The notes under the pieces: generated by a model
The model's input: only the letters and a program-made list of their open reading frames with translations
Told to the model about the DNA's origin: nothing
Databases searched by the model: none
Part shown: piece by piece, positions 1-53,934 of the stretch
Position numbering within the stretch: the first letter of the stretch is position 1
Layout of the letters: every line of letters starts with the position of its first letter
Assembly: GCA_947095585.1 (NCBI GenBank)
Contig: OX352763.1
Location: 33,963,462-34,027,461 of the forward strand
Length of the DNA: 64,000 bases
Origin: Nephrocerus scutellatus
Taxonomy: Eukaryota > Arthropoda > Insecta > Diptera > Pipunculidae
Direction: 5' to 3'
Program-made: the position numbers and the translations under genes

Positions 1-1984
1 TACAAGTTGAGACACTGTCTAAATTAGGGCTTCTGTATATGAAGCAGAAGTAAATGGTATGCTTACGCACTTTGACTTTGTGCCAAATGAAGTTAAATTC
101 CGCGTTGGAACAATGATTGAAATGTGCTTGGGTTTGGTAAGCTATATCATTAAGTACAAATTATTGCGAAACCGCGGTGGGGAAAAAATACTGGTACCAA
201 GTTGTAACCAGACCAACTAAAATCCGAAATGTCAGAATCAGCATTAACCAAGGCTTCTGTTAGTGCCAGAATATCAGAATGACTAGAAAAGGCCAATCTG
301 CTTGCTGTTTTGCCGGATTCTGTTTGCCGCATCTTTTTAAGATGTAAGCTATTTAAGATGTATCTGCACAGACATCTAATCTATTTCTCGGTGGAATTTC
401 CCAACGCCCATGCTGTGCTTAGCATTATAAGTGTGCAAATTCCTTGAGCGAGAGGACTTTAAAAAAGAATTAACATAAATTAAGGCAAAAACTGACTTCA
501 AAACTCGCTTCAAAAATGATTTAGAAGATGCGACTCAGGGACTTGTGGCCGCTAGAGAAAATGTAGTTTTCCTTCCCATGATTGTTGTTTTGTTTATTTG
601 ATTTTGTACATTATACAGATTCATATGCATTTGTAGTGTAGTTTTGTTAATAAAAAAAAATCCCTTAAAAACCTCTTTAAAGATGATGATGATGATGAGA
701 TTCCACGGACTGAAAAATATCGAAAGGAATTTTAATTTTTACTTTTTCCCATTTGACTAATAGAATATAGAGGTAAGTACAACTTTTTATGTTTACAGTT
801 TTTTTAATAGCATCCAAACATTAAAGTAGTTCTTCTCACATTTAAATACCTTATAAATAGTATACTCGTAGCTAATAGTTACCTACATCTTTAAACGGTT
901 GACTCTAGACCATTATTCTCTTTCACTGCATTCGTCACATCATGCCATTTTTTCAAGCAATCAACTTGAATGCTTTTCTTGAATGCAAATTACAATTTTT
1001 TTTTTATTAATTAATGAGAAAAACAAAAAATTGCACAAAGTTCAAAGTAGATGCATCGGAGTGTGATCGTAGAATTTGTTCTCTTGTAGTACGTTGTTTC
1101 CTTTCATCCTTTTTTCAGCATTTAATCTTCCATTGTTGCCATATTCAAAACCAGAAAAACAAAACAAAAAATTTCAGTTTTTCATGCGAATTTTCTTCTT
1201 CTTCTTCTTCTTCTTTTTCTCCCCACCATTCGTTCTTCGTTCGTTTATCCGACTTACGATTCCCAAAACAAAACCCGCACAGCACTCGGTAAGTAAAAGA
1301 ATTATTTGTTTCATTTTCCATAAGAATTCAATTTCTTAGTTAAGGATACGTCGAAAGCTGGAAGCAAAAGTAGGCGGGATAGAAAATTATATACATATAT
1401 ATGTGATATATGATGTATGCATGATGTATATAACGAGGATGGTGTTGGTAAACGTTTTCTGAATTAAATTACTTTTCCGCCCTATATAATGCATATAATT
1501 GAGATACAAAGTTATGTCCTTGTCCTTGACAATGGGCTCATTTTTCCCTTCTTTGCTTACTATTCATATTAAAGCAGAAAACTTACCAGTTCGAACAAGT
1601 AAATGGGGAAAAGGCAGACTTGAAAGTTTCACTACCCTGAAGTGTCATCCCTGATGCGATGCTCGTAACGATGATGGTTGCGTATATCACAGTTTCGTAA
1701 GTAAACAGAGCGTTGTTGACGGATTTTTTAGTTTAAGTCTTGCAATTTTGCGCTACGCACCGTAGTTTCATTTGGGTTCCATCGTCGTTAAATTGTATAT
1801 TAATTGAGGACATTTTTTGTTCTTTTATTATCGTTATCATCATTTTTGGCTCAACAATCGTGTTCCGGTTCTGGCATCCGGCGAAAAGCATCGGAGATTT
1901 CTATCCGATTTCAACTCGTTTTCCTACTGTTTTATGATTTTTTTTAATTTCTTCACGCGTAAAGGGGCTCTTCTTTTTCTTATT
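1..1984. other. Non-coding, AT-rich stretch with small relics
   Basis: No gene is recognised. The stretch has a short (GAT)n run near 681-697, following an A-rich tract, which looks like the 3' end of an old retroelement. It also has a (TTC)n run near 1192-1217 and TA-rich DNA near 1385-1430. Short open frames around 1014-1339 run through the TTC tract and show no family resemblance. A CR1 3' tail at 390-472 is listed separately. Confidence 0.6.
390..472 (+). repeat. CR1-type element 3' tail (solo remnant)
   Basis: About 80 bp match the 3' untranslated end of the CR1-type element at 3942-4036. Both contain the phrase 'ctgtgcttagcattataa' (or close variants) followed by 'gtgcaaat'. Only the extreme 3' end is present, as expected for a severely 5'-truncated target-primed insertion. 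A third copy of the same tail lies on the minus strand at 30531-30595. Confidence 0.6.
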
Positions 1985-2075
1985 AAATCCTTTTACCCAT
2001 CGAGGGACATAGGCCGTCAACAACGCCTACGCGCCATCTTGTTCTGTTTTCTGCAACGCATTTGAGCTGCCTCCT
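1985..2075 (-). mobile_element. RTE-A2 retrotransposon, C-terminal end and 3' end (split copy, distal part)
   Basis: Read on the minus strand, this piece encodes the last ~30 residues of an RTE-type ORF: NRTRWRVGVV, then a short tail and a stop. The same peptide block ends the intact RTE-A ORF at 50681. It appears to be the missing 3' end of the RTE copy at 4040-4690, whose protein stops at the motif EEEAR; here the protein resumes a few residues further on. The 1.96 kb between them is a later insertion. Reading frames are degraded. Confidence 0.65.
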
Positions 2076-2090
2076 AACTCATTTCTAGGA

Positions 2091-2513
2091 AAATTGTTAC
2101 TGTCCTCCAGATAAAGCGTTAGGGTACATCTTTTCATATTTTTCTATATTGAGTAACTTCAAGATTTCCAAGATTTCCAATGCAATTTGGTGCTTTTCTT
2201 TCTTGGAAGAGCTGCGGATAGCAAATTTTATATCTTCTACTAATGTCTTATGAGGAAGTAATGCACAATGCTGAAAAATCATTCCGATATTTCTACGTTC
2301 TATAGCAACTGATGCCTTATTGCATGCAACTAATATAAAAATGGTTCCAAATTTTAGATTTTCTATCCCCGCAATTAACTTCAAAATTGTTGACTTGCCA
2401 CAGCCAGAATGACCCAATAAACATGCAACACTTCCTTTTTTTACTTTAATGTTTATGTTACTTAAAGCAAAGTCGTCTTGATTGTTATAAAAAAAAAACC
2501 AATGTTGCAAGAG
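2091..2513 (-). pseudogene. Bacterial ABC-transporter ATP-binding protein, fragment (laterally acquired)
   Basis: A 137-codon open stretch encodes the first half of a bacterial ABC importer ATPase of the CysA/PotA/FbpC type. Such proteins hydrolyse ATP at the inner membrane to drive import. Visible motifs in order are Walker A (GHSGCGKST, ~residues 33-41), the Q-loop (IGMIFQ followed by LLPHKTLVEDI, ~75-92) and the signature LSGGQ at the very end. A TAA stop then sits where the family has another Gln, so a single C-to-T change in a CAA codon would explain it. Walker B, D-loop and H-switch are absent, so the fragment cannot be functional; whole family proteins are about 220-370 aa. The apparent start is a TTG next to a T10 run, with an in-frame TAG 18 nt upstream, so the true N-terminus is missing. 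Homology ends within a few bases of the 5' end of the CR1 element at ~2514. The Lys/Ile/Asn-rich, AT-rich coding resembles Rickettsiales such as Wolbachia; that donor is inference. Confidence 0.85.
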
Positions 2514-4036
2514 TTGAATCCTCTATGGGCAGATTAACTTCGTACTCGTCAAGTGGCTAGAGTATTCAATAATCTCAACATTCATAAATCTGCTGGGCCT
2601 GATGGCATTCCCCTTATAGTTTTGAAGAGGTGTTTTTCAAAGTTGGCATTACCACTGCGCAGACTTTTCCATTTCTCGTATTCTTCTGGAGTCGTTCCAA
2701 GGAATTGGAAAACAGCCTTTATCCAGCCTGTTCCCAAAAAAAGGCGAAACGTCATCTCTTTCCATGTACCGACCCATTGCACTAACATCTATACTCTCCA
2801 AGGTCATGGAAGTCCTGATCAATCGTAAGCTTATGCAATACCTTGAATCACGTAAAATACTTAGTGACCAGCAGTATGGTTTTCGTAGGCAATGTTCTAC
2901 AGGTGACCTGATGAGTAAAAAGTGGAAAAGAGTCGATTCACAAATTTGGTGAAAGTAAAGTTGTTGCTCTCGACATTTCCAAGGCATTTGACAGAGTCTG
3001 GCATCAAGCTCTGAATACCTATGGAATAAATAACACCCTACCCGATTGGACTAGTAACCACCTTTCTGACCGTTCAATCCAGGTCGTGTTGGACGGATTC
3101 AAATCCATTGTTCACCGCATAAGCGCCGGTGTTCCTCAAGGCTCTGTTTTATCTCCGATTTTCATTAATGATCTCCTATCCACCACCTCTAATCCAATCC
3201 ATTCTTTCGCTGACGACAGCACTCTTAACTTTTCATATGACTTCACGCATTCTGCACGCCCCTCTTCGTCACAAGTGGAACATGAACAACAACGTATGTT
3301 AAGCCAGTTAAATTCTGACCTTGACCTTTACCTTTAACGCTTCTAAAACGCAATGCTGTCTTCTGTCGTCCAAGCGTAATTTAAACCCCCAACCTTTATC
3401 CATGAATGGATCTTGCATCAAAGAAACTGAAAAACACTCAATTCTCGGTATGTGCGTCAACAACAAGCTTCGTTGGAATGACCACATATTTGCCATCGCC
3501 AAAAATGCTGCGGGATGTTTAGGTTTCCCAAAACGGTACAAGATGTACTTCACTCCTTCAGATCTGGCTACTATTTACAAGGCGTATTTTCGTCCTAAAC
3601 TTGAATACAACTGTATTGTCTGGCCAGGTTCCTCCAAGAGCACATTTCATCTACTAGACAGAGTTCAGAACCACGCGTTAAAACTTATTGGTGACGTAAA
3701 TATCGCGAAAACAATCGAATCGCTTGAACATCGTAGGAATGTTTCCTGTCTGTCACTGTTTTATCGCTTTTTCCACAATCGGTGTTCAAAAGAAATATCC
3801 AGTGCATCCCGCCCATTCTCCAACCCATCCGTAATACCCGTGCCTCAACTCGAGCCATTAAGCCTATCTTCTGACTTACTAACCAATTCAGAGATTCGTT
3901 CTTTAGCCGCACTACAGTTATGTGGATTGAATTGCCTGATTCTGTGTTTCCACATTTTTATTATCTGCGCCCACGCTGTGCTAAGCATTATAAGGGTGCA
4001 AATCCCTTTAGCGTGTGTACCTTAATAAAAATAAAG
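2514..4036 (+). mobile_element. CR1/jockey-type non-LTR retrotransposon, 5'-truncated, frameshifted
   Basis: Reverse-transcriptase remnant without its endonuclease. In order it shows KSAGPDGIP (RT block 1, ~2587), MYRPIALTSILSKVME (~2764), SDQQYGFR (~2868), DISKAFDRVWH (~2978), GVPQGSVLSP (~3130), the catalytic FADDST (~3205), and the C-terminal CVNNKLRWNDHI and KYLG-type thumb region to ~3900. The 3' UTR ends in an A-rich AATAAAAATAAA. At least three frameshifts separate these pieces, so it is dead. Homology to the second copy at 9760-10310 starts at about 2514, giving a precise 5' truncation point that abuts the bacterial ABC fragment. The family assignment (CR1 versus jockey) is by motif spelling only. 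Confidence 0.85.
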
Positions 4037-4039
4037 GAC

Positions 4040-4690
4040 CTTGCTTCCTCCTCGCCTGTTCGGCGCCACGTCCTTCTAGCGCGTCCCGCTGTTCTACCTG
4101 CCTGGGTGAGCGGGTTCCACTGCATGGCACATTTCGCAATGGAGTTGTCGTTGTGCCGTAGTGTGTGTCCAATCCACCGCAACTTTCTCCTTCGCACACT
4201 ATAGGTTTTTGGCCGGTTCTCCGATGAAGTTCGTCGTTGGATATACGAGATTGGGCCAGAAGATCAAGATGAGACGTAAGCATTTGTTTACGAAAGATAT
4301 CACCTTGCGCGTGGTAGTACTGCACCCATACAACAGTACTGATTCGACGTTGGAGCGGAACAGTCGAAGCTTAGTTCTTTAACCTGAAAACATTGCTTCT
4401 CCAGACTTTCGATAGCAGTCCGAAGGCAGCCCTTTCTTTCCCGGTTTTGCTGCACACATCCAGTTCGGCGCCACCGCGTTATCCGAGACAACACTTCCTA
4501 GGTATAGAAAGTTGTCAACACTTTCGACTACCTGTCCAGCAATGTTCAGTCGAAAGCGGGTGTTAGAAGTTTTCAGGGCTTTTTTTTTTTGGCAGCGTTT
4601 ATCTTGAGCCCAACTTTGTTTGCTTCGGTTTCTGGATTTTGGGCCATCATATGAAGGTCCATTATCCAATGTGAGAGCAGGCAAATATCG
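4040..4690 (-). mobile_element. RTE-A2 retrotransposon, C-terminal half (split copy, proximal part)
   Basis: Minus-strand RTE relic covering the region after the RT palm: LNIAGQVVESVDNFLYLGS (~4520), then, after frameshifts, RKLRWIGHTLR, AMQWNPLTQ and TWRRTGEEEAR at ~4045. The same blocks occur near residues 770-950 of the intact RTE-A ORF, but with many substitutions, so this is an older subfamily. The copy is 5'-truncated. At its 3' side it is cut by the CR1/ABC insertion, and its last residues lie at 1985-2075. A TGCYTCCTCCT-like string at both edges (2066-2075 and 4040-4052) may be the target-site duplication. Confidence 0.7.
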
Positions 4691-5640
4691 TCACGTAGTC
4701 CAGGTGTTTAAGGTAAGTTGCCATAGTCCATCGAATTACATTGTTCCCTACCGTCAGTGCTGCAAGGAGTACATCGCTGATGACCACTTTGCAATTTCAA
4801 GCTCAATTTTTCTGCAAACTGGAAAATTCACATCACTGCTTTGTTTCTCTTATAGGATGTTTCATCTGGCTCGCGCTAAGCACACAATTGAAATGTCAAG
4901 GACATAAATATTAACTTTTATATATATATATTAGGATTTACCTGTCCCTAAAATCTGAAAATCTCGCCAATGTATATTTTATGCACCAAATATTTCGAAA
5001 TTTCTCCCTGCAAAGGTAGAAGTCATGCCAGCAAGGAAAAATGACACAACAATGAAAAATTACTTTGAGTTATTGTCGAAAATTTATTTTCCTACAATAG
5101 ACACAATGTGGTGCAAGGAGAGTGGTGCAGAGAACCTACTAAACCGTATCGTATTCAACCAACCGTACGTCGTATTTGTATGTAACTCCACTTCATTCCC
5201 AGCTTCGACCACCAAGAGAGCTTCACACATCCACCTCTGTCACTTTCCCTTTCCATAGCATTCGCATAGTTCACGTAATGAATATTTAAGCGCAGTAAAA
5301 TTCCTTGCGCTACGTGTGGAATGGCTTCCAGCATCAGAGGTATAACCAATCAAAAAAACATAATGAGGAACGTTTATTAACCCTTTCTTGGCAGCTCTGC
5401 CGTTTGATGAGGCAATTTTTTTAAGCTTAATAAAGAAAAAGTGAAAACAAAAATTAAATGAAGACTAGTTATGTTTGTCGGGTGAGCTTTGCGAACTTTT
5501 TACAATATCATTGTACATTGTGCAAGGAAGTAGTGAAAACATGCGCGCTATATATACATATATCATAAATACCATGTGCCAATTTATGGTTATAATTTAA
5601 AACGTATAATCTCACCCGTAAAAAAAACTAATACGAAACC
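4691..5640. other. No gene seen
   Basis: AT-rich DNA with a (TA)n tract near 4918-4931. A 77-codon open frame at 5025-5258 has no recognisable domain and is not called. Confidence 0.5.
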
Positions 5641-5644
5641 CCAA

Positions 5645-6190
5645 ATCAGCCTCGGATACACTGATGAACCACGACGACCACGGCAACGAAACGGTTTAAC
5701 GATTTAAGAATTTTCTCATGGAACGTAGCAGATAGCCGATAGCTTGTCTAAATATACTGCTGACATAACATATAACATGCTGACATAAATGTCTAGAGTT
5801 TCAAAACTCACTACACCATAATTTTATAGACTTTAAAGCCGCATAGCATAGCCAGAGTAGAACTTTATAAAGCCTTGAGAGAATTCGGCATCCCAAATAA
5901 ACTGACGCTATTATGTAAGTTGACCATGACCTATGTTATAAGCCAAGTAAAAATATCCGGATCACTAACGGGCTCCATCAAGGGGATGGACTGACCTGCG
6001 TCCCCTTCAACGTGGAGTTGGAGAAAGTAATCCGAGACGCCCTTTGTAACGGCGAGAGGAACAATCATCTATAAGTCCATTCAGATACAGACGATATTGT
6101 CATCGTAGAAACCCAAGAGCTGTACAGAAAGGTTTATCCAGATCGAGCAGGTGGTACAAATTGAGGGCAAAACAAAGTATATTTTCGCAC
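5645..6190 (+). mobile_element. RTE-B retrotransposon, internally deleted relic
   Basis: The first ~150 bp match the 5' end of RTE-B as seen at 21835 and, in reverse, at 45490: the 'cagcctcggatacactgatga' region, then the Met-Arg/Trp-Asn start of the endonuclease. The sequence then jumps to the RT domain (IDFKAA-like, then AKSKISGSL, then the LEKVI block and the start of the palm). Nearly all of the endonuclease is deleted and stop codons are frequent. It retains the uninterrupted target in which the copy at 42-45 kb carries a SINE. Confidence 0.7.
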
Positions 6191-6223
6191 CATGTCATCT
6201 AGAAATTGTGATGGTGAGAGATA

Positions 6224-7400
6224 TCATAGGCATAGTCCAGGTACCCTAGGCGGTGAAGAACATTTCATGGCAAACCCGATGGAGTACGGGTTACTATTTT
6301 CATCACCCAGTCGATGACAATTCGAAAAAGCAATGGTGAGAAGATGCAACCTTGCTTGACTCCAGAGTAGCTGTTGAAAGGTGAGCCATGTTGAGTCGCG
6401 GTACAGCTCCATAATGATATTAATGAGTTTTTCCGGAACACCATAGCTAGACAAAATCTGCCATATCATGTATACAGAGGAGAGCGATACTCAACTGACT
6501 GTTCAATGATTATACGCAGGGTGTTAATTTGATCAGTACAAGAACGGTTTGGGAGAAATCCTGCTTGTTCATTTCTTAAAATTGGCTCTAACGCATTCCG
6601 TAAGCGCCTAGCTATTATAGAGGAGATCACTTTGTTTATGGTGCTTAGCAGGGTAATTCCTCGCCAGTTTTCGCAATTGCTCAAATAACCTTTCTTGGTC
6701 AGTTTGACTATTAAGCCTTCTTTTTACCGCATGATGGAATGGGATCAGATTCGCAGATACCTTGATATATCGCATGCAATGTTCGCGTACTTAACTCGAC
6801 GTCGGCTTGAAAGCAGAGTTCTGCGTAGATGTTGTCATTGCCTGTGATTGCAGTGAACGAATTGTTGTCCTTATCTCATCCAACGAAGGAGTAGCGAAGC
6901 TGATATTAAGTAGCCTATTGGGGTGCATATGTGGGTTGATGGACGTGCCTGGCGAAGTACAATTCAAAACCTTCTAAAAATGTTCTGTCCAGCGGGTTAA
7001 TTGTTGTTCCTCCATAAGGATCACAGAGCCGTCTATTGCCTTAACAGTGTAGTTGATGTGGTGTTTGTTGTTGGCGAGCTTACGAGCGAGTTGGTAGACT
7101 GTGCTGTATTGTCTACTATCAGCGGCTTGCTGTGCTTGTGTTGCGATGTCGCTTAGCCATGCTTGTCTGTCGTTCCTAGCTGAACAGCCAACTTGCCTAC
7201 ACTTCCGCGCTAATGCGCTTCGCACGCCACCAGAGGCCGCGTTTAACTTTACTTTGATGGATTGGCGTTTACGAATGCTTTTCCATGTGCTATCTGATAT
7301 CCATTCTTTTCTAGTTTTGTCGGCATACCCTAAAATTTCATTCACAAACAATAAATGTATCTTACAGTTAAGGTACGGTATCGACAAAATTTTTCGCAAG
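6224..7400 (-). mobile_element. RTE-C retrotransposon, 5'- and 3'-truncated, RT core deleted
   Basis: Minus-strand RTE-type ORF pieces. They include the linker after the endonuclease (GYADKTRKEWISDSTW, then YQLARKLANNK and LTRWTEHF, ~7340-6975), RT blocks NCENWRGITLLSTINKV and NEQAGFLPNRSCTDQINTLR (~6680-6480), and ILSSYGVPEKLINIIMELY (~6450). Between YRSPLYT and MIWQILSSYG the block containing the first catalytic Asp is missing, so an internal deletion removed the active site. This is a third RTE family, distinct from A and B. Confidence 0.75.
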
Positions 7401-9759: not shown

Positions 9760-10310
9760 TGTCGCAAAGGCAGTAAAAACTTTTGGTCTTTCGTGAAAAG
9801 AAGAAGCCTCGTCGTCGATTCCAACGCTCATTTATAATGACATTCCAGTTATCAGCTTTAAAGACAAGGACAATCTGTTTGCTTCTCATTTTACAGCTAG
9901 CTCCACGCTTCCAGATTGTGCATCCTGTGTGCCTGCACCTCTGAGTATTGAACACTCCATGGGACAGATTTACATTCGCATTCATGCAGTTGCTAGAGTT
10001 TTAAAAGATCTCAACCTCAGAAATCCGCTGGGCCAGATGGTATTTCCTCGTTAGTTATAAGGAGGTGTTCTTCCAAGCTGACATTACCATTGCGTAAGCT
10101 TTTACATCTATCCTATTCTTCTGGACTCTTCCCGAGAAGTTGGAAAACAGCCTTTGTCCAGGCCATATCCAAAAATTGCGAGCCATCGTTTTTTTCTTGG
10201 TGACAGCAAACTCGATATTTCTAAGGCATTTGATAGAGTTTGGCATCAAGCTCTTTTGTCAAAAAGGCGTGCTTATGTGTTTCATTGGATGAGAAGCTAT
10301 CTTTTGAACC
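9760..10310 (+). mobile_element. CR1-type retrotransposon, internal fragment
   Basis: Second copy of the element at 2514-4036. It reads FWSFVK (~9778), SHFTASSTLPDCASC (~9885), APLSIEHSMGQIY (~9945), a VARVLKDLN block (~9988), then after a deletion LDISKAFDRVWHQAL (~10213). It extends further 5' than the first copy and has no bacterial sequence there. This shows that the ABC fragment at 2091-2513 is not part of the CR1 family. Confidence 0.7.
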
Positions 10311-10373: not shown

Positions 10374-11147
10374 CTTTGTTAGGTTAGGTTAGGTTAGGTT
10401 GAAGTGGCCGTCAGTCAAAACCGACGCACTTAGACCGTGAAGGTCCGTTGTTATACCACAAGGATCCAGGAATATTCCACGCCTACTCGTTGAACCACTT
10501 GGAGCTTTGTATAAGGAGCAAGAGACTATTAATATCAATGTGGGTTATATCGTTGAAAAAGAACGCTCCCAGATGGAGCTTCCGCCTATTCGAGAGGGCT
10601 GGGCACGTACAAAGTAGATGGCGAGTGGTTTCCTCTTCCTCCTCATCCATGCAGCTTCTGCAAAAATCATTGGAAAAGACTTCTAGTCTTTCTGCATGCT
10701 TGCCTATGAGACAGTGTCCAGTTATGACACTTATAATGGCACTAATGTACAGTCTGTTTTGAGAGATAAAACACTTGGAGCATTTCGGATCTAGCTTGGG
10801 CCAGATTTGTTTCGTTGCTATGCAAGTTGTGCCGTTTGACCATCTATAATTAGTTTTTACTATAGCATCCCGTGTAACCATCAGCTTGCACGTAGCGATC
10901 GGCATTCCTAGTGAACCATATTCAGGCAATAGGGGTAGTGTAGTTCCATGTTTGGCGAGTTCATCAGCCATACCAAGAACCGAGAATGTCTCTGTGCCCC
11001 GGCACCCAGCACAGGTGAATGTTAAAATGCTTCGTCATCTCCTCAAGAGACGATCGGCAATTCCGGGCTAGAATGTGGAAACTGATTCCATGGACTTTAG
11101 CGCAGCCTGGCTATCCAAGAAAATGTGGATATCCTTAACAGATATAA
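10374..11147 (-). mobile_element. LOA-1 retrotransposon, 5'-truncated copy with RNase H end and (AACCT)n tail
   Basis: Minus-strand 3' end of a LOA-type element. It encodes the RNase H end (DIHIF-DSQAALKSMES, then MADELAKHGTTLPLLPEYGS) and the C-terminal tail with the Cys/His cluster CRSCMDEEEEETTRHLLCTCPAL, stopping at ~10483. The element ends in four AACCT pentamers (10381-10400, TTAGG on the plus strand). An 11-12 bp direct repeat 'aagctttgttag' lies at both ends (10362-10373 and 11148-11159), so the insertion is recent. It disrupts the family D element. It is ~95% similar by eye to the copy at 32741-35095. Confidence 0.85.
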
Positions 11148-30530: not shown

Positions 30531-30595
30531 TTTTATAATTAGCGTACGCTTCAAGCGATTTGCACCCTTGTAATGCCTAGGCACAGCGTGGGCTT
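30531..30595 (-). repeat. CR1-type element 3' tail
   Basis: Reverse complement of the CR1 3' end at 3965-4030: 'gcccacgctgtgcc', then 'aagggtgcaaatc'. Only ~65 bp remain. Confidence 0.6.
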
Positions 30596-32740: not shown

Positions 32741-35095
32741 AGGTTAGGTTAGGTTAGGTTGAAGTGGCCGTCAGTCAAAGCCGACGCACTTAGACCAAGA
32801 AGGACTGTTATGATTCCACAAGGATCTAGGAAAATTCCACGCCTACTCGTTGAACCACTTGGAGCTTCGTATGAAGCGCAATAGACTATTAATGTCAATT
32901 TGGGTTAGATCGTTGAGATCGTTGAAAAAGAACGCTCCCAGATGGAGCTTCCGCCTATTCGATAGGGCTGGGCACGTACAAAGTAGATGAAGAGTGGTTT
33001 CCTCCTCCTTCTCATCCATGCAGCTTCTGCAGAAATCGTTGAGAAGGACTCCTAGTCTTTCTGCATGCTTGCCTATGAGACAGTGTCCAGTTATGACACC
33101 TATAATGGCACTAACGTGTAGTCTGTTTAGAGAGATCAAACACTTGGAGCGTTTCGGATCTAACTTGAGCCAGATCTGCTTCGTTGCTATGCAAACTGCG
33201 ACGTTTGACCATCTATAATTAGTTTTTACTATAGCATCCCGTGTAACCATCAGCTTGCACGTAGCGATCGGCATGCCTAGTGAACCATATTCAGGCAATA
33301 GGGGTAGTGTAGTTCCATGTTTGGCGAGTTCATCAGCCATACAATTACCAGGAATGTTTCTGTGCCCGGCACCCAGCACAGGTGAATGTTGAAATGCTCT
33401 GCCATCTCCTCAAGAGACGATCGGTAATTCCGGGCCAGAACTGAATTTGTAGTGACTGATTCCATGGACTTTAGCGCAGCCTGGCTATCCGAAAAAATGT
33501 GGATATCCTTAACAGATGTGACATTACTCTTCAGCCAAGACAAGGCTTCCATAATAGCCATGATTTCCGCTTGGAAAACACTACAGTGGTCAGGAAGACG
33601 GAAAGAGAGACTTAGATTTAGTCTTTTTCAAAAGACACCTCCGCCAACCCCTTCTTCAGTTTTTGACCCGTCTTTATAGAAATGAATTCCTTCATTTTCC
33701 AAGTTGATACCTTCCTCCCAAGAAGACCTGGAGGGGATGGTAACCTGGAAATTTTTGTTGAAGTGGAGCTGCGGAACGGTGTAGTCTAAATTGACAAGTG
33801 GAGTCCGGACTGAATTCAGGATAGAAGGTCCACTGAGAGATTGCTCTGAGGCGAGTAGCCGCGCTTGCAGCCAGTTGTCTGCCGAAGATGTCGTGTGGAG
33901 CAAGGTTGAGCATGAAATGTCCATAGCAGCAGAGGGAGTTGTACGAAGCGCTCCGCTCACACAAAGACAAGCCCATCTTTGGACTCTGCTTAGTTTGTCG
34001 CGATTGATCGCTTTATCTAATGCAGTCCACAAAACAGCCACATTGTATAGCAGAATGGGTCTGACTACTGCTGTGTACAGCCAATGAGTAATATGCGGTT
34101 GGAGACCCCATTTACTTCCTATGGCTTTGCTTGAGAAGAGTGCGACTGTGGCTTTTCGGACTCTTTCTTGTATCTTGGGCTTCCAGCTCAGCTTCCTTTC
34201 CAGAATAAGACCAAGATATTTGGCCTTATCGGAGAAAGTCAAGCTTGTGCCCTTGATGGACGGAGGGTTGACGAGTGGGATTTTGTACTTCCCCGTTAAG
34301 AGGACAAGTTCGGTTTTTTGGGGGTTTACCTCTAGACCACAATTAGCTGCCCAGCTTATTAGCTTATTTAGAGCAGAAGTTCTTTCAAGGTGTGTGGGTG
34401 CTTTCCTGGGACGGCTATGGCAACGTCGTCCATATAGGCGATCACTCCACATCCCTCCTCCCTCAGGCGAACCATCAGCTCATTCACCGCCACGTTCCAA
34501 AGAAGTGGTGGCAGGCCCCCTCCTTGCGGGGTGCCTCTGCTGACAAATCTTTTGGTAGACGATAAACCAAGTTTTGAATTTATGATACTACTTGTGAGTA
34601 GTGAGTGAGTGAGTCGTTCACCCCCACACTGACGTGTGACTGCTTTTGGAATGAAGGCCACTTTCACTTCTCTCCATAAAACTGGAGTATAGACCAGATC
34701 AAGACAACTTTTGAAAATTGTCTCAAGCAAAGGAAGGATAATGTCCGACTTCCTTTGCAGTTCGGCCGGAATTATGCCGTCTGGTCCTGCAGATTTATGT
34801 GGTTTGAAGCTATGTAGTGCCCAAAGCAGCTTGCCCTTATCAATTATATCTCGAGAGATGGTATTATACCTAATTGATCTATTTAGATCAGTGCTGTAGG
34901 TAGTATGAGAGTTATCTGGGAAATGGGTATCTAGAAGCAGATTAAGAGATTCTTCGCTAGAAGTAGTCCACGAGCCATCAGCTTTTTTCAGACAGCTAGT
35001 CATTATTGGATTCGTTGAGAGGATTTTCCTGAGCCTTGATGCTTCCGAAGTCTCTTCCATTCTGCCGCCGAAGAGTCTCCAGGATGCGCGTTTGG
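32741..35095 (-). mobile_element. LOA-1 retrotransposon with RT, RNase H and (AACCT)n tail
   Basis: Minus-strand LOA-type element, 5'-truncated (no endonuclease). RT starts at MEETSEASRLRKILS and shows PHKSAGPDGIIPAELQ (~34800) and VKVAFIPKA (~34660). It then jumps to GTPQGGGLPPLLWNVAVNEL (~34530), so the middle of RT with the first catalytic Asp is deleted; a (GTGA)n patch marks the junction. The palm box is YMDDVAIAV (~34440), followed by NPQKTELVLL, KYLGLILERKLSWK and RPILLYNVAVLW. RNase H follows: YKDGSKTEEG (~33670), ALSWLKSN, FSDSQAALKSME (~33480), CMADELAKHG (~33340). The tail CRSCMDEKEEETTLHLLCTC ends at ~32843. Four AACCT units end the element at 32760-32741. Frameshifts at ~34410 and ~33380 inactivate it. 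Confidence 0.85.
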
Positions 35096-35214: not shown

Positions 35215-36455
35215 ACTGGTGCCAATGTTTGGTAAGGTATGCCACAATCAACGGTAACACGATGCTCATAAGTTCCGTAGTGTCGGTCACTAAGGATTTC
35301 GCGATGTTCAAGAAATTTCTTTTTTAACCTTGAATAGAATGGAGGTATATGATATGGGTCGATACGAAGAAGCAGACGGCGGCTTGCCTTTTTTAGTTAC
35401 AGACTTGACAAAGGCTGTTTTCGAACTCTTTTTGAAGAGTCTATCAAAATAAGATATATGGAAAAGTTTATGCAATCGCAGCTCCCGCTTTTAGACCTAA
35501 TGGGAAAATACCAATGGGAGACGACGGCTTGCCTTTTTAGTTACAGACTGGACAAAGGCTGCTTTAGAACTCTTTGGGAAGGGTCTATCAGAATAAGATA
35601 GATGGAAAAGTTTATGCAATAGCAGCTCCCGCTTTTACGACCTAATGGGAAAATACCAATGGGAGACGACGGCTTGCCTTTTTAGTTACAGACTGGACAA
35701 AGGCTGCTTTAGAACTCTTTGGGAAGGGTCTATCAGAATAAGATATATGGAAAAGTTTATGCAATAGCAGCTCCCGCTTTTAGACCTAATGGGAAAATAC
35801 CAATGGGAGACGACGGCTTGCCTTTTTAGTTAGAGACTGGACAAAGGCTGCTTTAGAACTCTTTGGGAAGGGTCTATCAGACTAAGATATATGGAAAAGT
35901 TTATGCAATAGCAGCTCCCGCTTTTAGACCTAATGGGAAAATACCAATGGGAGACGACGGCTTGCCTTTTTAGTTACAGACTGGACAAAGGCTGCTTTAG
36001 AACTCTTTGGGAAGGGTCTATCAGAATAAGATATATGGAAAAGTTTATGCAATAGCAGCTCCCGCTTTTACGACCTAATGGGAAAATACCAATGGGAGAC
36101 GACGGCTTGCCTTTTTAGTTACAGACTGGACAAAGGCTGCTTTAGAACTCTTTGGGAAGGGTCTATCAGAATAAGATATATGGAAAAGTTTATGCAATAG
36201 CAGCTCCCGCTTTTACGACCTAATGGGAAAATACCAATGGGAGACGACGGCTTGCGCCTTTTTAGTTACAGACTGGACAAAGGCTGCTTTAGAACTCTTT
36301 GGGAAGGGTCTATCAGAATAAGATAGATGGAAAAGTTTATGCAATAGCAATTCCCGTTTGGAAGACCACCTTTTCAGGTCCATTGGGAAAATACCATCTG
36401 CATTAGTGTATTTTGAGACTTCTTCGTTACGGAACTCGGTAGGTCGAATCAATAA
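35215..36455 (-). mobile_element. CR1-type RT fragment containing an internal tandem array
   Basis: The right end encodes, on the minus strand, NADGIFPMDLKRWSSK, LHKLFHLSYSDRPFP and SKAAFVQSVTKKA (36400-36260). These correspond to SAGPDGIPLIVLKRC, RLFHFSYSSGVVP and KTAFIQPVPKK in the CR1 copy at 2590-2740. The left end continues in order with DPYHIPPF-type residues and EHREILSDRHYG (~35300; CR1: ESRKILSDQQYG). Between the two, part of the coding sequence has been amplified in tandem. The copy is inactive. Confidence 0.7.
35355..36370 (-). repeat. 144/145-bp tandem array derived from the CR1 RT gene
   Basis: About seven units. The landmark 'gggagacgacggcttgcc' starts at 35516, 35661, 35805, 35949, 36094 and 36239 (steps 145, 144, 144, 145, 145), with a diverged unit to the left from ~35370. 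Internal units differ at only a few positions ('tagac'/'tacgac', 'tagatgg'/'tatatgg'), while both outer edges are more diverged. The unit encodes the CR1 LFHLSYS...KTAFVQPV region on the minus strand. Since the period is not a multiple of three (145), it is not being kept as protein. Confidence 0.9.
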
Positions 36456-37914: not shown

Positions 37915-40385
37915 ATTCTTCTTCTTATTCTTATGTCCTATATTCACTTGTGGGTCATAGAGCCTCTACTACGCCTACGTGCAATCGCGTGCGGTTTCTG
38001 GAAATGAGCTTCAGCTCTCTCCAACTCTTTCCCAATTTCCGTGACTCCTCCTCGACTGTTCTGCGGCATGTATTTTTCGGACGACCCGTTCTTCTACGAT
38101 CCTGAGATAACGGACTCCATTGCATTGCATAGTTTGCTATGGAACTGTCGCCTTTTCGTAGTGTATGACCAATCCACTGTCACTTCCGTCGTTGGATGGT
38201 TGTGCCTATTGGTTCCTGACCCGTTCTTTGGTAAATATGTTCGTTAGAGATATGATTAGGCCAGAACTTTTAGGATATTCCGTAGGCACCTATTTACGAA
38301 CATTTGTAATCCTTTTGTGTTAGTAGCGGTCACCTTCCAAGTGCTGCACCCATACAACAGCACAGATTCAACATTTGAGCGGAACAGTCGCAGCTTGGTG
38401 TTTAAGCTGATCGCATTGCTTCGCCATATCATGGAAAAAAATGAGTTAGTGCCGAGGTTAATGATTTTAGTATTGGCTGTATTAAACCACAAACGCGCAA
38501 ACTTTTTGCTTCACTTTTCACATTTGTTGTCATTTAGTGCAGCTCCATAATCCTGTTTGAGAGTAAACAAACGTCGTCAGCGTAGTCCAGATGTTTGAGT
38601 TGAGATGTAAGAGTCTAACGAATTCCTCCGTTTCCAGTAGATAAAGCTGCGCGTAGCACATCGGTAATCAGCAACTAAAAAAGTATCGGTGATAGAATGC
38701 AACATTGTCGTACCCCACTTAGGATCTCGAAATCCTCTGACAGCTTTCTTCTATGCACATTCTAAGCACATGACATTTAGAGCCATCATAGGTTGATTTA
38801 TTAATAGCTATTAGTTTACCGGGTATGCCTCTCCTGCGCATGGCGAGCCAGATAAACTGTCTCTTGACACTGTCAAACGCCTTCTCAAAATCGATGAACA
38901 GCAGGTGCAGTGCAGACCGGAATTCAACGCACTGTTCAATAATGATTGCAGGGTGTTGATGTGGTCTACACAGGAGGATCCAGATGTTCCTTAACTGGCT
39001 CAAGTACTATTTTGGCTATTACATTTGCAACTGCAGGAAGAACGCAAATGCCTCTCCAGTTTTCGATAAGACTACCTTTTTTAGGGAGCTTGATAATCAT
39101 TCCCTTCTTTATCTTTATTGGGAGTTGAGGTGCGAATTCGGGAAATTGTTACATCCGGCAGCTCCGTTTGATTTAGGTGCATATCGTTAGCGAATACACG
39201 ATTGAGGACCGTAGAAAAATGCTCCTTCCATCGCTTGAGCTGATCCTCATCGGAAACAAGTGCGGCACGATCTAAGCTTTTCACCGAATGTTGGCTAGAA
39301 CGGTGACCACCTATCAGCTCTTTGGTGATTCTGTAAACGGCTATGCTCTCGCACATGCTCGCTGCTTCCTCTGCTTCTGAGGCCAGGTTTTTAATTTAAT
39401 TGCGTTTGTTACGTCTTACACTACGCTGCATTTCTCTCATTTTTCTTCGATACAGGAACTCAAGTTTGATCCTCGCTGCTGCTGGGGTATTTACAATACG
39501 TGCTTTTAGTAGCTTACGATCTTCAATCCGCCTCCAGGTATCTTCGGTAAGCCACGTGCTATGCCTTGCCTGGCTTCTACCAACAATACTTTCCGCACCA
39601 GATGTGAAAACATTTTTCACAGCCTTTCCAATGTTCTTGGATGGTTGTCGGCAGTGAGCTGCTGATTGCTTTTGCTCCTTGCGATAAATGATCCCTTAAT
39701 TGTTGGCGTACTGAGGGGATCTTTAGCCGGTCGAAGTTATACCTAGACATTCGGATGATATTGCGGATTCTTTGAACTGATGCAGTACGTAACTGGACAG
39801 TAGCTACCATAAGGTGATTGTCCCATACCATACCCATGTCGGCTCCTCCTCTGTTTCGGACGTCTTAAAGACAGCTCCTAAAATGTCGGCTGATCGCCAC
39901 ATGGTCGTTTTGGTTGGATGATGATTGCCTGTCTGTTGACACCAAGCTGACTTTGTGGCAGGTCTTATGCTCAAACATGGTACCTCCTATGACAAGATGG
40001 TTGGTGTTGCATAAGTCAACAAATCTTTCACCAATGTCATTTCGTTCGCCGAGGGCGTGCTTCCCAATCACATGTCTGAGTCTTTCATTGTCGTTGCCTA
40101 CCTTGGCATTCAACTCCCCATCACGATGACGATATCTCCGTTCGGCGTTGCGTTGAATACATCGCTTAGCTTTGTTTTAGCTTTTTGTAGAAATTGTCCT
40201 TTCATCCTCAGTCGAATGGCGTAACACTGCATGATCGTGACGCGCCGTACTCTAGTCCGAAGTCTGGCCGACAAGATCCTATCACCATGTGGGAGCCAGG
40301 AAATTAGGTCCTTGTGTGCTGTTGGCGTTAACAGCAGACCCACCCCAGATTCACGGGGACTGCCGGAGGGTTTGCAGGACATATA
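37915..40385 (-). mobile_element. RTE-A retrotransposon, long degenerate copy
   Basis: Minus strand, collinear with the intact copy at 50.7-53.7 kb. From the endonuclease it has PSGSPRESGVGLLLTP (~40360), RRVTIMQCYA, PNGDIVIVMG (~40135) with the following D-L-N damaged, QSSSNQNDHVAISR (~39920) and MVWDNHLMVATV. From the linker it has SQARHSTWLTEDTWRR (~39570). From RT it has LLFIDFEKAFDSVKRQ (~38900) and GVRQGC-like remnants, with the YADD region deleted or garbled, then NVESVLLYGCSTWKVT (~38390). The 5' ~230 bp of the ORF is absent. At least six frameshifts make it inactive. Confidence 0.85.
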
Positions 40386-47119: not shown

Positions 47120-47525
47120 AAATTTACACTGGTGATTATTTATAATTCACTTATAACACTTTTTGATCAAAAGGCGGTAGCTATCTCTGTATACTTGTGA
47201 TTACTTATTATTCACTTATAACACTTTTTATTCACATAGGCGGTAGCTATCTCTATATACTTGTGATTACCTATTATTCACTTATAACACTTTTTATTCA
47301 AAAAGGCGGTAGCTTTCTCTAAATACTTGTGATTACTTATTATTCACTTATAACACTTTTTATTCACATAGGCGGTAGCTATCTCTATATACTTGTGATT
47401 ACCTATTATTCACTTATAACACTTTTTATTCAAAAAGGCGGTAGCTTTCTCTATATACTTGTGATAACTTATTATTCACTTATGACACTCTTTATTCAAT
47501 AATGCGGTAGCTCTCTCTCTATACA
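47120..47525. repeat. 66-bp minisatellite with alternating subtypes
   Basis: The landmark 'gcggtagct' recurs at ~66-bp steps (47173, 47239, 47305, 47371, 47437, 47503). Units alternate between a 'cacataggcggtagctat' form and a 'caaaaaggcggtagcttt' form, so the true period is 132 bp. Non-coding. Confidence 0.9.
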
Positions 47526-49984: not shown

Positions 49985-50668
49985 GTCAAGTTGTACAAAA
50001 TAATACAATACAAAACAATACAGTACAATACAATACAAAACAATACAAAACAATACAAAACAATACAAAACAATACAATACAATACAATACAATAAAATA
50101 CATACAATACAATACAATACAATACAAAACAATACAAAACAATACAATACAATACTACAATACAATATAATACAATACAATACAATACAATACAATACAA
50201 AACAATACAATTCAATACAATACAATACAAAACAATACAATACAATACAATACAATACAATACAATACAATACAATACAATACAATACAATACAAAACAA
50301 TACAATACAATACAAAACAATACTACAATACAATATAATACAATACAATACAATACAATACAATACAATACAATACAATACAATACAACAAAATACAATA
50401 TAATACAATACAAAACAATACAATACAATACAATACAATACAATACAATACAATACAATACAAAACAATACAATACAATACAATACAATATAATACAATA
50501 CAAAACAATACAATACAAAACAATACAATACAATTCAATACAATACAATACAATACAAAACAATACAATACAATACAATACAATATAATACAATACAATA
50601 CAATACAATACAATACAATACAATACAAAACAATACAATACAATACAAAACAATACTACAATACAATA
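49985..50668. repeat. (TATTG)n pentanucleotide array, 3' side of RTE-A
   Basis: About 680 bp of 'atacaata' repeats (TATTG on the minus strand) with variants 'acaaaaca', 'acaatata', 'actacaata' and 'acaattca'. A ~100-bp higher-order pattern ('acaacaaaatacaatataa', 'aaaacaatactacaata') recurs. The pentamer has no stop codon in any minus-strand frame, giving spurious frames of up to 238 codons. Confidence 0.95.
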
Positions 50669-50680
50669 TTTCTTTCTTCT

Positions 50681-53680
50681 TTATGTCCTGTATCCCCTTA
50701 TGGGTCCTAGGGCCTCTACTACGCCTACGCGCCATCGCGTGCGGTTCCTGGCAATGAGCTTCAGCTCTCTCCAACTCTTCCCCAATTGCCGTGCCTCCTC
50801 CTCAACTGTTCTGCGCCATGTATTTCTCGGACGACCCGTTCTTCTACCATCCTGAGATAACGGGTTCCATTGCATTGCGTAGTTTGCTATGGAACTGTCG
50901 CCTTTTCGGAGTGTATGACCAATCCACTGCCACTTCCGTCGTTGGATGGTTGTGCCTATTGGTTCCTGACCCGTTCTCTGGTAAAGATGTTCGTTAGAGA
51001 TACGGTTAGGCCAGAAAACCCTTATGATGTTCCGTAGGCACCTATTTACAAATGTTTGTAATCTTTTTGTGATAGTAGCGGTCACCTTCCAAGTGCTGCA
51101 CCCATACAACAGCACAGATTCAACATTTGAGCGGAACAGTCGCAGCTTGGTGTTTAAGCTGATCGCATTGCTTCGCCATATCATGGACATCATTCCAAAC
51201 ACCGATTTTGCTTTGCCGATTCGGTTGGCAATGTCCTGTTCGGTTCCACCTTCGGTCGAGACAATACTCCCAAGATATTGGAAACTCTCTACTCTCTCTA
51301 CCGGCTGTCCAGCAATGTTAACATGAGTAACTGAATTAGTGCCGAGGTTGATGATTTTGGTTTTGGCAGTATTAATCTTCAAACCCGCAACATTTGCCTC
51401 CCTCTCCACATTTGTTGTCATTTGGTGCAGCTCCATAATTCTATGTGAGAGTAAACAAACGTCGTCAGCGTAATCCAGATGTTTGAGTTGAGATGTAAGA
51501 GTCCAACGAATTCCTCCGTTTCCAGTAGATAAAGCTGCGCGAAGTACATCGCTAATCACCAACAAAAAAAGTATCGGCGATAGAATGCAACCTTGTCGTA
51601 CCCCTCTTAGGATCTCGAATTCCTCTGACAGCTTTCCTCTATGCAGCACATGACATTTAGAGCCATCATAGGTTGCTTTAATAATAGCTATTAGTTTATC
51701 GGGTATACCTCTCCTGCGCAAGGCAAGCCAGATAAACTGTCTGTTGACACTGTCAAACGCCTTCTCAAAATCGATGAACAGCAGGTGCAGTGGTGACCGG
51801 AATTCAACGCACTGTTCAATAATGATCCGCAGGGTGTTTATGTGGTCTACACAGGAGGATCCAGTGCGGAAACCTGCTTGTTCGGCATCGAGTGTATCTT
51901 CCAGATGTTCCTTAATACGTTCAAGTACTACTTTGGCTATTACTTTTGCAACTGCAGGGAGAACGCAAATGCCTCTCCAGTTTTCGCACTCCATAAGACT
52001 ACCTTTTTTAGGGAGCTTGACAATCATTCCCTTCTTCCACTCTTCGGGGAAACTTTCTACCTCCCAAGCTCTCTCTACAAGAGGATATAAAAGCTCAGCT
52101 GATGTCGTTGGAGCTGCACGCAGAAGCTCTGCGGGTATACCATCTAGTCCTACCGACTTGTTGTTCTTTAGTGCGTTAATCGCGGTAGCGATCTCGTCTT
52201 TACTGGGAGTTGAGGTGCGAATTCGGGAAATTGTTACTTCCGGCATTTCCGCTTGATTTAGGTGCATATCGTTAGCAAATACACGGTTAAGGACCGTAGA
52301 GAAATGCTCCTTCCATCGCTTGAGCTGATCCTCATCTGAAACGAGTACGGTACCATCTAGGCCTTTCACCGGATGTTGGCTAGAGCGGTGACCACCTGTC
52401 AGCTCTTTGGTGATTCTGTAAACGGTTCTGCTATCGCACCGGCTCGCTGCTTCCTCTGCTTCTGAGGCCAGGTTGTTAATATAGTTACGCTTGTCACGTC
52501 TTACACTACGCTGCACTTCTCTCATTTTTCTTCGATACATGGACTCTAGCTCGCTCCTCGCTACTGCTGGGATATCTACAATACGAGCTTTAAGTAGTTT
52601 ACGTTCTTCAATCCGCCTCCAGGTATCTTCGGTAAGCCACGTGCTGTGCCTTGCCTGGCTTCTACCAACAATACTTTCCGCTCCAGATGTGAAAACATTT
52701 TTCACAGCCTTCCAATGTTCCTGGATGGTTGTCGGCAGTGAGCTGCTGATTGCTTCCACTCCTTGCGATAAATGATCCCTTAATTGTTGGCGTACTGAGG
52801 GGATCTTTAGCCGGTCGATGTTATACCTAGGCATTCGGATGATATTGCGGATTCTATGAACTGATGCAGTACGTAACTGGACAGTAGCTACCATAAGGTG
52901 ATGATCACGTACCATACCCATGTCGGCTCCTCGTCTGTTTCGGACGTCTAACAGACAGCTCCTAAAACGTCTGCTGATCGCCACATGGTCGATTTGGTTG
53001 GATGATGATTGCCTGTCAGTTGACACCCAGCTGACCTTGTGGCAAGTCTTATGCTCAAACATGGTGCCTCCTATAACAAGGTTGTTGGTGTTGCAGAAAT
53101 CAACAAATCTTTCACCATTGTCATTTCGTTCGCCGAGGCCGTGCTTCCCAATCACATGCTTGAGTCCTTCATTGTCGTTGCCAACCTTGGCATTCAAATC
53201 CCCCATCACGATGACGATATCTCCGTTCGGCGTTGCGTTGAATACTGCGTTTAGTTGATTGTAGAAGTTGTCCTTTTCATCCTCAGTCGAGGGATTCGTT
53301 GGGGCGTAGCACTGTATGATCGTGACGCGCCGTACTCTAGTCCGAAATCTGGCCGATATGATCCTATCACTATGCGGGTGCCAGGAAATTAGGCCTCTAC
53401 GTGCTGTTGGCGTTAGCAGCAGACCCACTCCAGATTCACGAGTACTGCCGGAGGGTTTGCCAGAGTAGAGTAGCACAGTGTTACACGTTGGGGATTGGTA
53501 CTCTCCCGCGTCGAACCATCTTACTTCACTCACTCCCAGTATGTCCAAATTATATCGAAGAAACTCACGTTCCAGTTGAAGAAATCTGGCATTATGAGGT
53601 CCTTCACTTCCAGAGTCAAGGAGCGTCCTCACATTCCAGAAACCAATCTTAGTCCGGGTACAATAGCCAAAAGTCGTCAT
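50681..53680 (-). CDS. RTE-A retrotransposon polyprotein (APE endonuclease + reverse transcriptase), intact ORF
   Basis: Single uninterrupted ORF of ~999 codons from the ATG at 53680 to TAA at 50683-50681. It is the normal length for RTE-clade elements, which encode one protein. Endonuclease: FWNVRTL (14-20), SEVRW (51-55), IVIVMGDLNAKVG (155-167), NQIDHVAISRR (228-238), RDHHLMVATV (258-267). Linker ~280-495. RT: VGLDGIPAELL (510-520), GICVLPAVAKV (570-580), LLFIDFEKAFDSV (633-645, first Asp), GVRQGCILSPILF (693-705), YADD (737-740), KTKIINLG, FQYLGS. C-terminus: WIGHTLRK, TWRRTVEEEAR, NRTRWRVG. All catalytic positions expected for both activities are present, unlike the other copies here, so it may be autonomous or very young. 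The frame also stays open upstream through the pentamer repeat; the chosen ATG is the first after unique sequence begins. The RNA would be nicked-DNA primed in the nucleus; that is family knowledge. Confidence 0.93.
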   Translation of the reverse strand: MTTFGYCTRTKIGFWNVRTLLDSGSEGPHNARFLQLEREFLRYNLDILGVSEVRWFDAGEYQSPTCNTVLLYSGKPSGSTRESGVGLLLTPTARRGLISWHPHSDRIISARFRTRVRRVTIIQCYAPTNPSTEDEKDNFYNQLNAVFNATPNGDIVIVMGDLNAKVGNDNEGLKHVIGKHGLGERNDNGERFVDFCNTNNLVIGGTMFEHKTCHKVSWVSTDRQSSSNQIDHVAISRRFRSCLLDVRNRRGADMGMVRDHHLMVATVQLRTASVHRIRNIIRMPRYNIDRLKIPSVRQQLRDHLSQGVEAISSSLPTTIQEHWKAVKNVFTSGAESIVGRSQARHSTWLTEDTWRRIEERKLLKARIVDIPAVARSELESMYRRKMREVQRSVRRDKRNYINNLASEAEEAASRCDSRTVYRITKELTGGHRSSQHPVKGLDGTVLVSDEDQLKRWKEHFSTVLNRVFANDMHLNQAEMPEVTISRIRTSTPSKDEIATAINALKNNKSVGLDGIPAELLRAAPTTSAELLYPLVERAWEVESFPEEWKKGMIVKLPKKGSLMECENWRGICVLPAVAKVIAKVVLERIKEHLEDTLDAEQAGFRTGSSCVDHINTLRIIIEQCVEFRSPLHLLFIDFEKAFDSVNRQFIWLALRRRGIPDKLIAIIKATYDGSKCHVLHRGKLSEEFEILRGVRQGCILSPILFLLVISDVLRAALSTGNGGIRWTLTSQLKHLDYADDVCLLSHRIMELHQMTTNVEREANVAGLKINTAKTKIINLGTNSVTHVNIAGQPVERVESFQYLGSIVSTEGGTEQDIANRIGKAKSVFGMMSMIWRSNAISLNTKLRLFRSNVESVLLYGCSTWKVTATITKRLQTFVNRCLRNIIRVFWPNRISNEHLYQRTGQEPIGTTIQRRKWQWIGHTLRKGDSSIANYAMQWNPLSQDGRRTGRPRNTWRRTVEEEARQLGKSWRELKLIARNRTRWRVGVVEALGPIRGYRT

Positions 53681-53717
53681 TATTCGATCATTACTTATCC
53701 GAGGCGTTGTGTCAGTT

Positions 53718-53932
53718 TCCACAATACAATATAATACAATACAATACAATACAATACAATACAATACAATACAATACAATACAACAAAATACAATATAAT
53801 ACAATACAAAACAATACAATACAATACAATACAATACAATACAATACAATACAAAACAATACAATACAATACAATACAATATAATACAATACAATACAAT
53901 ACAATAGAATACAATACAATACAATACAATAA
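53718..53932. repeat. (TATTG)n pentanucleotide array, 5' side of RTE-A
   Basis: About 215 bp of the same pentamer as 49985-50668, including the same 'acaacaaaatacaatataa' variant phrase. It begins within ~38 bp upstream of the RTE-A ATG. The repeat thus brackets the element on both sides. Confidence 0.95.
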
Positions 53933-53934
53933 AT

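What the first reader, a model, noticed from the sequence alone, without database searches (positions are those of the whole stretch)
2066..4052. Bacterial ABC-transporter gene fragment fused to the 5' end of a retrotransposon insertion
A 0.42-kb piece of a bacterial import ATPase (Walker A, Q-loop, LSGGQ) directly abuts, within a few bp, the 5' truncation point of a CR1-type element. Together they form one ~1.96-kb block that splits an older RTE copy. The two are in opposite orientation. A second CR1 copy (9760-10310) covers the same junction without any bacterial DNA, so the bacterial piece was added at the junction. This fits capture of endosymbiont DNA as filler during 5'-end joining of target-primed reverse transcription, or a template switch. 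Contamination is unlikely because both sides are insect repeat DNA. Seen: the motifs, junction and order. Inference: mechanism and Rickettsiales donor.
Basis: partly seen in the sequence, partly recalled or inferred. Interest (0 to 1): 0.92.

Follow-up and report, generated by a model that had tools for sequence, protein, structure and literature searches.

The report
Wolbachia fragment joined to jumping gene
A 416-base piece of a gene from the symbiont Wolbachia sits in what looks like insect nuclear DNA, joined back-to-front to a cut-short retrotransposon copy, and both probably arrived in one event, which would show one way that symbiont DNA can enter a host genome.

Summary
Window 2092-2507 (minus) covers codons 4-142 of a Wolbachia ABC-import ATPase gene. 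The best DNA relative found, a Rickettsiales MAG, is 85% identical over 425 columns (89% without gaps); the closest database proteins that name an organism are Wolbachia. The piece has decayed: a stop right after LSGGQ, 3 residues lost, 3 duplicated, a longer poly-T. Three unassigned bases on, a 5'-truncated, 3'-complete CR1-type copy (2511-4034) follows in opposite orientation. Both lie in one older RTE copy that lost nothing: its reading frame runs on across the joined flanks. The limits allow two readings. (A) A 4-bp target duplication, AGGA at 2087-2090 and 4035-4038, around the whole block. (B) A 5-bp overlap, AATTG at 2092-2096, between target and Wolbachia DNA, with no duplication. Controls settle neither. 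Most likely Wolbachia DNA was patched in by end joining while the 5' end of a CR1 target-primed insertion was closed. Opposite orientation argues against a simple template switch. Rivals: joint capture at an ordinary break, or a fusion made elsewhere and then mobilised. The host genome could not be searched (15 attempts unanswered); the host species is unknown. One locus; known ingredients, unusual combination.

The parts
1971..2086 (-). 3' part of the older RTE copy, left side of the insertion (in reading B it runs on to 2096)
   Evidence: Aligns to RTE copies at 50.7, 38.0 and 17.3 kb in the window
2087..2090 (.). candidate left copy of a 4-bp target-site duplication AGGA (reading A)
   Evidence: Identical to 4035-4038; collapsing the two gives the same net spacing (16 nt) as in three other RTE copies and keeps the RTE frame. 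Chance of such a repeat: 0.5% with fixed ends, 7% with ends free over 4 positions each
2092..2096 (.). AATTG, found both in Wolbachia and in the RTE copy at 50.7 kb at this place (reading B: 5-bp overlap of target and Wolbachia DNA)
   Evidence: Join 2096/4039 scores best of 342 joins; random L001 10-mers do as well in 87 of 600
2092..2507 (-). Wolbachia-derived 5' part (codons 4-142) of an ABC import ATPase gene (Walker A to LSGGQ), pseudogenised
2508..2510 (.). CAA, assigned neither to Wolbachia nor to CR1 (filler or diverged CR1)
2511..4034 (+). 5'-truncated CR1-type non-LTR retrotransposon, 3' end complete with A-rich tail
   Evidence: RVT_1; 5' limit against copy 9943; 3' end shared with copies at 405 and 30593
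4035..4038 (.). candidate right copy of the 4-bp duplication AGGA; its first A could also be CR1 tail
4039..4786 (-). older RTE copy, right side of the insertion
   Evidence: Aligns to RTE at 50789-51561 (65.6%) and 38046-38426 (66.9%), and
9943..10187 (+). second CR1-type copy covering the same CR1 position without bacterial DNA
   Evidence: 76.4% over 229 columns of 9948-10175

Best explanation
A CR1-type LINE inserted into an old RTE copy by target-primed reverse transcription. Its cDNA stopped early (5' truncation at 2511). Before the free cDNA end was joined to the upstream target end, a 416-bp fragment of Wolbachia DNA was patched in between by end joining. The Wolbachia piece has since decayed as a nuclear pseudogene. 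Shown here: Wolbachia origin, decay, order and orientation, CR1 3' completeness, target without loss. Suggestive only: a 4-bp target duplication around the block (reading A), or a 5-bp overlap at the left join (reading B). Inferred: a single event, DNA rather than RNA as the source, end joining as the step.
For: In one search (120 listed of 7,848), each row above 64% identity to the MAG protein whose name gives an organism is Wolbachia. The fragment is 80% to the MAG protein, 82% to the unnamed P0001 over 135 residues, 58% to Mesenet, 53% to the best Ehrlichia row (first 35 rows printed; names). Tree of 35 rows: it groups with the MAG, P0001-P0004, P0011, P0012 and P0017, support 93/97, just below the tool's star. 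Decay: 5 of 62 columns invariant in 16 Wolbachia rows are changed in the window; also a loss of 3 residues that the 18 other rows of the alignment have, a 3-residue tandem duplication, CAA to TAA in the codon after LSGGQ, and 2 extra T. One site, no target loss: the RTE frame ...TWRRTGEEEAR...RRQLKCVAENRTRWR runs across the joined flanks in reading A (no net length change) and in reading B (+6 nt), but not if 2090 is joined to 4035. CR1 3' end matches two other copies and ends in an A-rich tail. Error-prone joining of cDNA 5' ends in Drosophila: PMC3280974 (abstract and section 7).
Against: The duplication is not certain: the 16 nt at the target match the other RTE copies at only 3-4 of 16 ungapped positions, so the equal spacing needs compensating indels; among 342 joins scored by gapped alignment the collapsed join ranks 94th and join 2096/4039 first. 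Without a duplication, target priming rests on the CR1 3' end alone. Even with one, duplications of 1-11 nt also arise in numt capture at ordinary breaks (17 of 71 events, PMC2567098, passages). dN 0.062 and dS 0.363 against the MAG show that most divergence was gained in bacteria, so nuclear decay is short; one Wolbachia row (P0017) has 4 unique changes against the window's 5, and both indels inside the frame are multiples of 3. No read data. One locus.
Confidence: 0.48

Rival explanations
1. Ordinary double-strand break repair captured two unrelated linear pieces, a CR1 cDNA end fragment and a Wolbachia DNA fragment, as joint filler.
For: Numt capture at breaks shows short overlaps, few added bases and, in 17 of 71 events, duplications of 1-11 nt (PMC2567098, passages). 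Reading B, a 5-bp overlap without duplication, fits this.
Against: The CR1 piece ends at its natural 3' end with an A-rich tail, as expected of target priming and not of a random fragment.
Confidence: 0.18
2. The Wolbachia-CR1 fusion arose elsewhere in the genome and was later transcribed and inserted here as one unit (a 5' transduction).
For: A duplication around the whole block (reading A) is what a mobilised fusion would leave.
Against: The ABC piece occurs once in the window; the second CR1 copy lacks it. The host genome could not be searched.
Confidence: 0.1
3. RNA source. Either reverse transcriptase switched from CR1 RNA to a Wolbachia RNA, or the upstream target end primed on a Wolbachia mRNA (as in twin priming, which inverts the 5' part).
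For: Opposite orientation fits second-side priming on an mRNA; the piece lies inside a coding region. In reading B the shared AATTG could have been the priming site.
Against: A simple switch needs an antisense RNA. In the MAG the ORF upstream (1565-2647) is divergent and the ORFs downstream (4243-4899, 4886-6265) are on the same strand; one 112-codon ORF on the other strand overlaps the last of these and is probably no gene. No poly(A) or transcript end is seen at either limit.
Confidence: 0.1
4. Two independent events: a Wolbachia insertion and a CR1 insertion that happen to abut.
For: Wolbachia DNA is common in arthropod genomes (PMC5704228, PMC3798261, passages and PMC3798261's abstract start in the listing).
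Against: Needs the second event to fall within 3 bases of the end of the first, with no RTE sequence between them.
Confidence: 0.08
5. Assembly chimera of a Wolbachia read with host repeat DNA.
For: Repeats on both sides; reads not available.
Against: The piece is broken (stop, loss, poly-T) and changed at sites invariant in the Wolbachia rows compared; the RTE frame runs on across the block.
Confidence: 0.06

Closest known systems
Nuclear Wolbachia transfers (nuwts) of insects and filarial worms
   Same: Wolbachia DNA in a host chromosome, mostly decaying without function; a 350-bp candidate piece, not yet confirmed, is cited for Melitaea cinxia (PMC5704228, passages)
   Different: Here the piece abuts the 5' end of a LINE copy, both at one site
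Numt capture at chromosomal breaks (PMC2567098, passages)
   Same: Short overlaps or few added bases at the joins, sometimes short target duplications, organelle DNA as filler
   Different: A LINE copy that ends at its own 3' end forms most of the block
5'-truncated LINE insertions; linear group II intron retrohoming in Drosophila (PMC3280974, abstract and section 7)
   Same: The cDNA end is joined by an error-prone step like end joining, with truncations and extra nucleotides
   Different: The filler is 416 bp of symbiont DNA; some of the extra nucleotides in that paper were copied from nearby sequence
Bacterial DNA inside Maverick transposons of Curculio weevils (PMC13419823, preprint, abstract and passages)
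   Same: Symbiont DNA physically tied to transposable elements in insects
   Different: DNA transposons that proliferated; here a single LINE insertion

Membership tests
Nuclear Wolbachia transfer (nuwt) | Sequence of Wolbachia origin | tested here: met
Nuclear Wolbachia transfer (nuwt) | Lies between host chromosomal sequences | tested here: met
   RTE on the left, CR1 and then RTE on the right; host species unknown
Nuclear Wolbachia transfer (nuwt) | No longer under the constraint of the bacterial gene | tested here: met
   Stop, 3-residue loss, duplication, 5 of 62 invariant columns changed; excess modest, P0017 has 4
Nuclear Wolbachia transfer (nuwt) | Reads or PCR span the joins | not testable with these tools
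   No reads held
LINE insertion by target-primed reverse transcription | 3' end complete with tail, 5' truncated | tested here: met
LINE insertion by target-primed reverse transcription | Target-site duplication | tested here: inconclusive
   AGGA on both sides; chance 0.5-7% by how free the ends are; another join scores better
CR1 clade | Reverse transcriptase groups with CR1 in a tree | not tested
Template-switch chimera | Second template in the same sense as the element | tested here: not met
   ABC on minus, CR1 on plus
Element family carrying the ABC piece (5' transduction) | The same junction at two or more loci | tested here: inconclusive
   Once in the window; host genome not searchable

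The most novel reading that the evidence does not exclude
LINE insertion is a regular door for symbiont DNA into insect germ lines: open 5' cDNA ends are closed with whatever double-stranded DNA is at hand, and in cells full of Wolbachia that is Wolbachia DNA. Such blocks would then be a countable class, some of them mobile as fusions.
Probability: 0.1. Interest if true: 0.75.

Novelty: new variant of a known kind. Interest (0 to 1): 0.5.

Why it matters
How short pieces of symbiont DNA get into insect chromosomes is mostly inferred from marks at their ends (my understanding). A Wolbachia piece and a LINE copy at one site, in a target whose empty state can be approached from sister copies, ties a transfer to one identifiable event. 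It gives a concrete search rule for insect genomes: bacterial DNA directly upstream of a 5'-truncated LINE.

Tried and rejected
Nuclear eukaryotic ABC gene: rejected; the closest relatives are Wolbachia, although distant eukaryotic ABC chains appear among the 60 rows shown of 343 in the PDB list. NCBIfam: 165 families matched, the 25 shown all below their cut-offs, as expected of a fragment; the name FbpC comes from a source's name for P0002. Plasmid source: the 5,000 records kept (limit reached) are all below 60% identity. Viral contigs, asked with P0001: 2 pattern matches, 0 confirmed. Naming the MAG's habitat: Zx50 gave 55 papers, the 20 listed unrelated. Naming the host by its RTE protein: best hit 59% and unnamed; named hits among the 120 listed of 869 are from several insect orders, molluscs and a coral, so 'insect or other arthropod' is an inference. 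Other bacterial genes in the window: of the 27 ORFs of 130 or more codons, 13 were scanned in Pfam; apart from the ABC piece they gave RVT_1 or nothing. Smaller ORFs outside 2538-4690 were not scanned. Rfam: none. P0241-P0243 might be other nuclear copies or poor contigs; not resolved. Precedent searches listed no Wolbachia-LINE block; I saw listings only, several were capped (20 of 470, 25 of 82), one search found no paper, and the library lacks most subscription journals.

Claims taken back on checking: the 4-bp duplication, which I first took as the key evidence for one event, is only a candidate. I lowered the main explanation from 0.55 to 0.48, the novel case from 0.12 to 0.10, the fusion-elsewhere rival from 0.12 to 0.10 and the interest from 0.55 to 0.5. 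I raised joint capture at a break from 0.14 to 0.18, the RNA source from 0.09 to 0.10, two separate events from 0.05 to 0.08 and assembly chimera from 0.05 to 0.06, since these had been held down by the duplication.

Full report
What is there. The minus strand of 2097-2522 is open for 141 codons and matches ABC_tran (9.4e-20) with Walker A (GHSGCGKST) and LSGGQ. At DNA level the match runs over window 2092-2507: 425 columns, 84.9% identity, 44 mismatches, 20 gap columns. The MAG gene is 247 codons long; the piece covers its codons 4-142. G+C is 0.32 in the piece, 0.42 in the CR1 copy and 0.40 in the window.

Donor. A search with the MAG protein gave 7,848 proteins, 120 listed. The rows above 64% whose name gives an organism are Wolbachia (65-91% to the MAG protein), then come Mesenet (64%) and Ehrlichia (54-56%). 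The window piece itself is 80% to the MAG protein, 82% to the unnamed P0001 (135 residues), 57-75% to the other named Wolbachia rows printed, 58% to Mesenet and 49-53% to named Ehrlichia rows. In a tree of 35 rows it falls in a group of 9 with the MAG, P0001-P0004, P0011, P0012 and P0017 (93/97, not starred); its place within that group is not resolved. So the donor is a Wolbachia; strain and supergroup are not determined.

Decay. Of 131 columns, 62 are invariant in 16 Wolbachia rows; the window differs at 5 of them. The Wolbachia rows, each left out in turn, have 0-4 unique changes (P0017: 4). In addition the window lacks 3 residues that the 18 other rows have, has a 3-residue tandem duplication, a CAA to TAA stop in the codon after LSGGQ, and two extra T near the start. 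Against the MAG, dN is 0.062 and dS 0.363 over 128 codons: most of the divergence is silent and was gained in bacteria, with a modest non-silent excess. This speaks against a live symbiont contig joined by mistake, though less strongly than reads would.

The CR1-type copy. ORFs on the plus strand after 2511 match RVT_1. The 5' limit comes from alignment with a second copy (9943-10187). The 3' end (to about 4034) agrees with two other copies, at 405 and at 30593 (minus), each followed by a different A-rich stretch soon after the shared core. So the copy is 5' truncated and 3' complete. The clade name CR1 was not tested by a tree.

The target. The sequences left of 2087 and right of 4038 are parts of one RTE copy on the minus strand. 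Two readings of the limits are open. Reading A: AGGA at 2087-2090 and 4035-4038 is a target duplication. With it collapsed, the stretch between two anchors is 16 nt, as in the RTE copies at 50.7, 38.0 and 17.3 kb (4 of 4; 20 if not collapsed), and the RTE frame runs on: TWRRTGEEEARS*K*VRRQLKCVAENRTRWR against TWRRTVEEEARQLGKSWRELKLIARNRTRWR in the open copy. Against it: inside those 16 nt only 3, 4 and 3 positions agree with the three copies without gaps, and in gapped scoring of 342 joins it ranks 94th. Reading B: the RTE runs on to 2096, because AATTG (2092-2096) fits both Wolbachia and the RTE at this place; this join (2096/4039) scores best of the 342 and keeps the frame with 6 extra nt (TWRRTGEEEARQFS*K*VRRQLK). 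Then there is no duplication and AGGA at 4035 is tail or filler. Controls: a 4-bp repeat arises by chance in 0.5% with fixed ends and in 7% with each end free over 4 positions; random L001 10-mers gain as much as AATTG does in 87 of 600 trials. Neither reading is settled. Both say that the RTE lost nothing and that the Wolbachia piece and the CR1 copy fill one insertion point.

Mechanism. A single event is the simplest reading (inference). Within it, the Wolbachia DNA lies between the upstream target end and the stopped CR1 cDNA, where the cDNA end has to be joined. In Drosophila, joins made there by linear group II introns look like non-homologous end joining, with truncations and extra nucleotides (PMC3280974, abstract and section 7). 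The CR1-side join has at most three extra bases; the target side has one (reading A) or a 5-bp overlap (reading B). The ABC gene is antisense to CR1, so a simple switch of template would need an antisense bacterial RNA; in the MAG the upstream ORF is divergent and the main downstream ORFs are on the same strand. Second-side priming on an mRNA would give the observed orientation and is not excluded. Joint capture at an ordinary break remains possible; numt capture shows short overlaps and, in 17 of 71 events, duplications of 1-11 nt (PMC2567098, passages). A fusion formed elsewhere and then mobilised can be excluded only by a host genome search.

Limits. The genome search did not complete (15 calls), so copy number in the host, the host's identity and the state of sister copies are unknown. 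The window looks arthropod by its retrotransposons (named relatives of the RTE protein include Colias, Cacopsylla, Periplaneta, Diaphorina and Lutzomyia, but also molluscs and a coral); no species is claimed.

Place among known things. Wolbachia transfers are common and mostly decayed (PMC5704228, PMC3798261, passages and abstract starts). In a paper on tsetse flies (PMC3998919) a passage search found nothing on retrotransposons at the insertions beyond a reference. A 2026 preprint reports symbiont DNA inside Maverick transposons of weevils (PMC13419823, abstract and passages). The searches named in Tried and rejected listed no Wolbachia-LINE block of this kind. I file it as a new variant of a known kind.

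Noticed in passing
35374-36356: A 144-bp unit repeated 6.8 times (97% matches) resembles, at 70-73%, the minus strand of a piece of the CR1-type copy near its reverse transcriptase start: a satellite-like array made from a retrotransposon fragment.
   Followed up: partly
50681-53959 (-): An RTE copy whose frame is open over its length, sitting inside a (TACAA)n array (49994-50668 and 53721-53931), so that the open frame runs into the array.
   Followed up: partly
10379-11034 and 32744-33409: Two ORFs of a non-LTR element (minus strand), similar by eye, each lie about 100 bases from a short (TTAGG)n run.
   Followed up: no
47128-47524: A 66-bp unit repeated 6 times, 89% matches.
   Followed up: no
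P0241, P0242, P0243 (proteins): Short, broken Wolbachia-like versions of the same ABC gene on contigs of 1.2-2.3 kb; may be other nuclear copies of this gene.
   Followed up: partly
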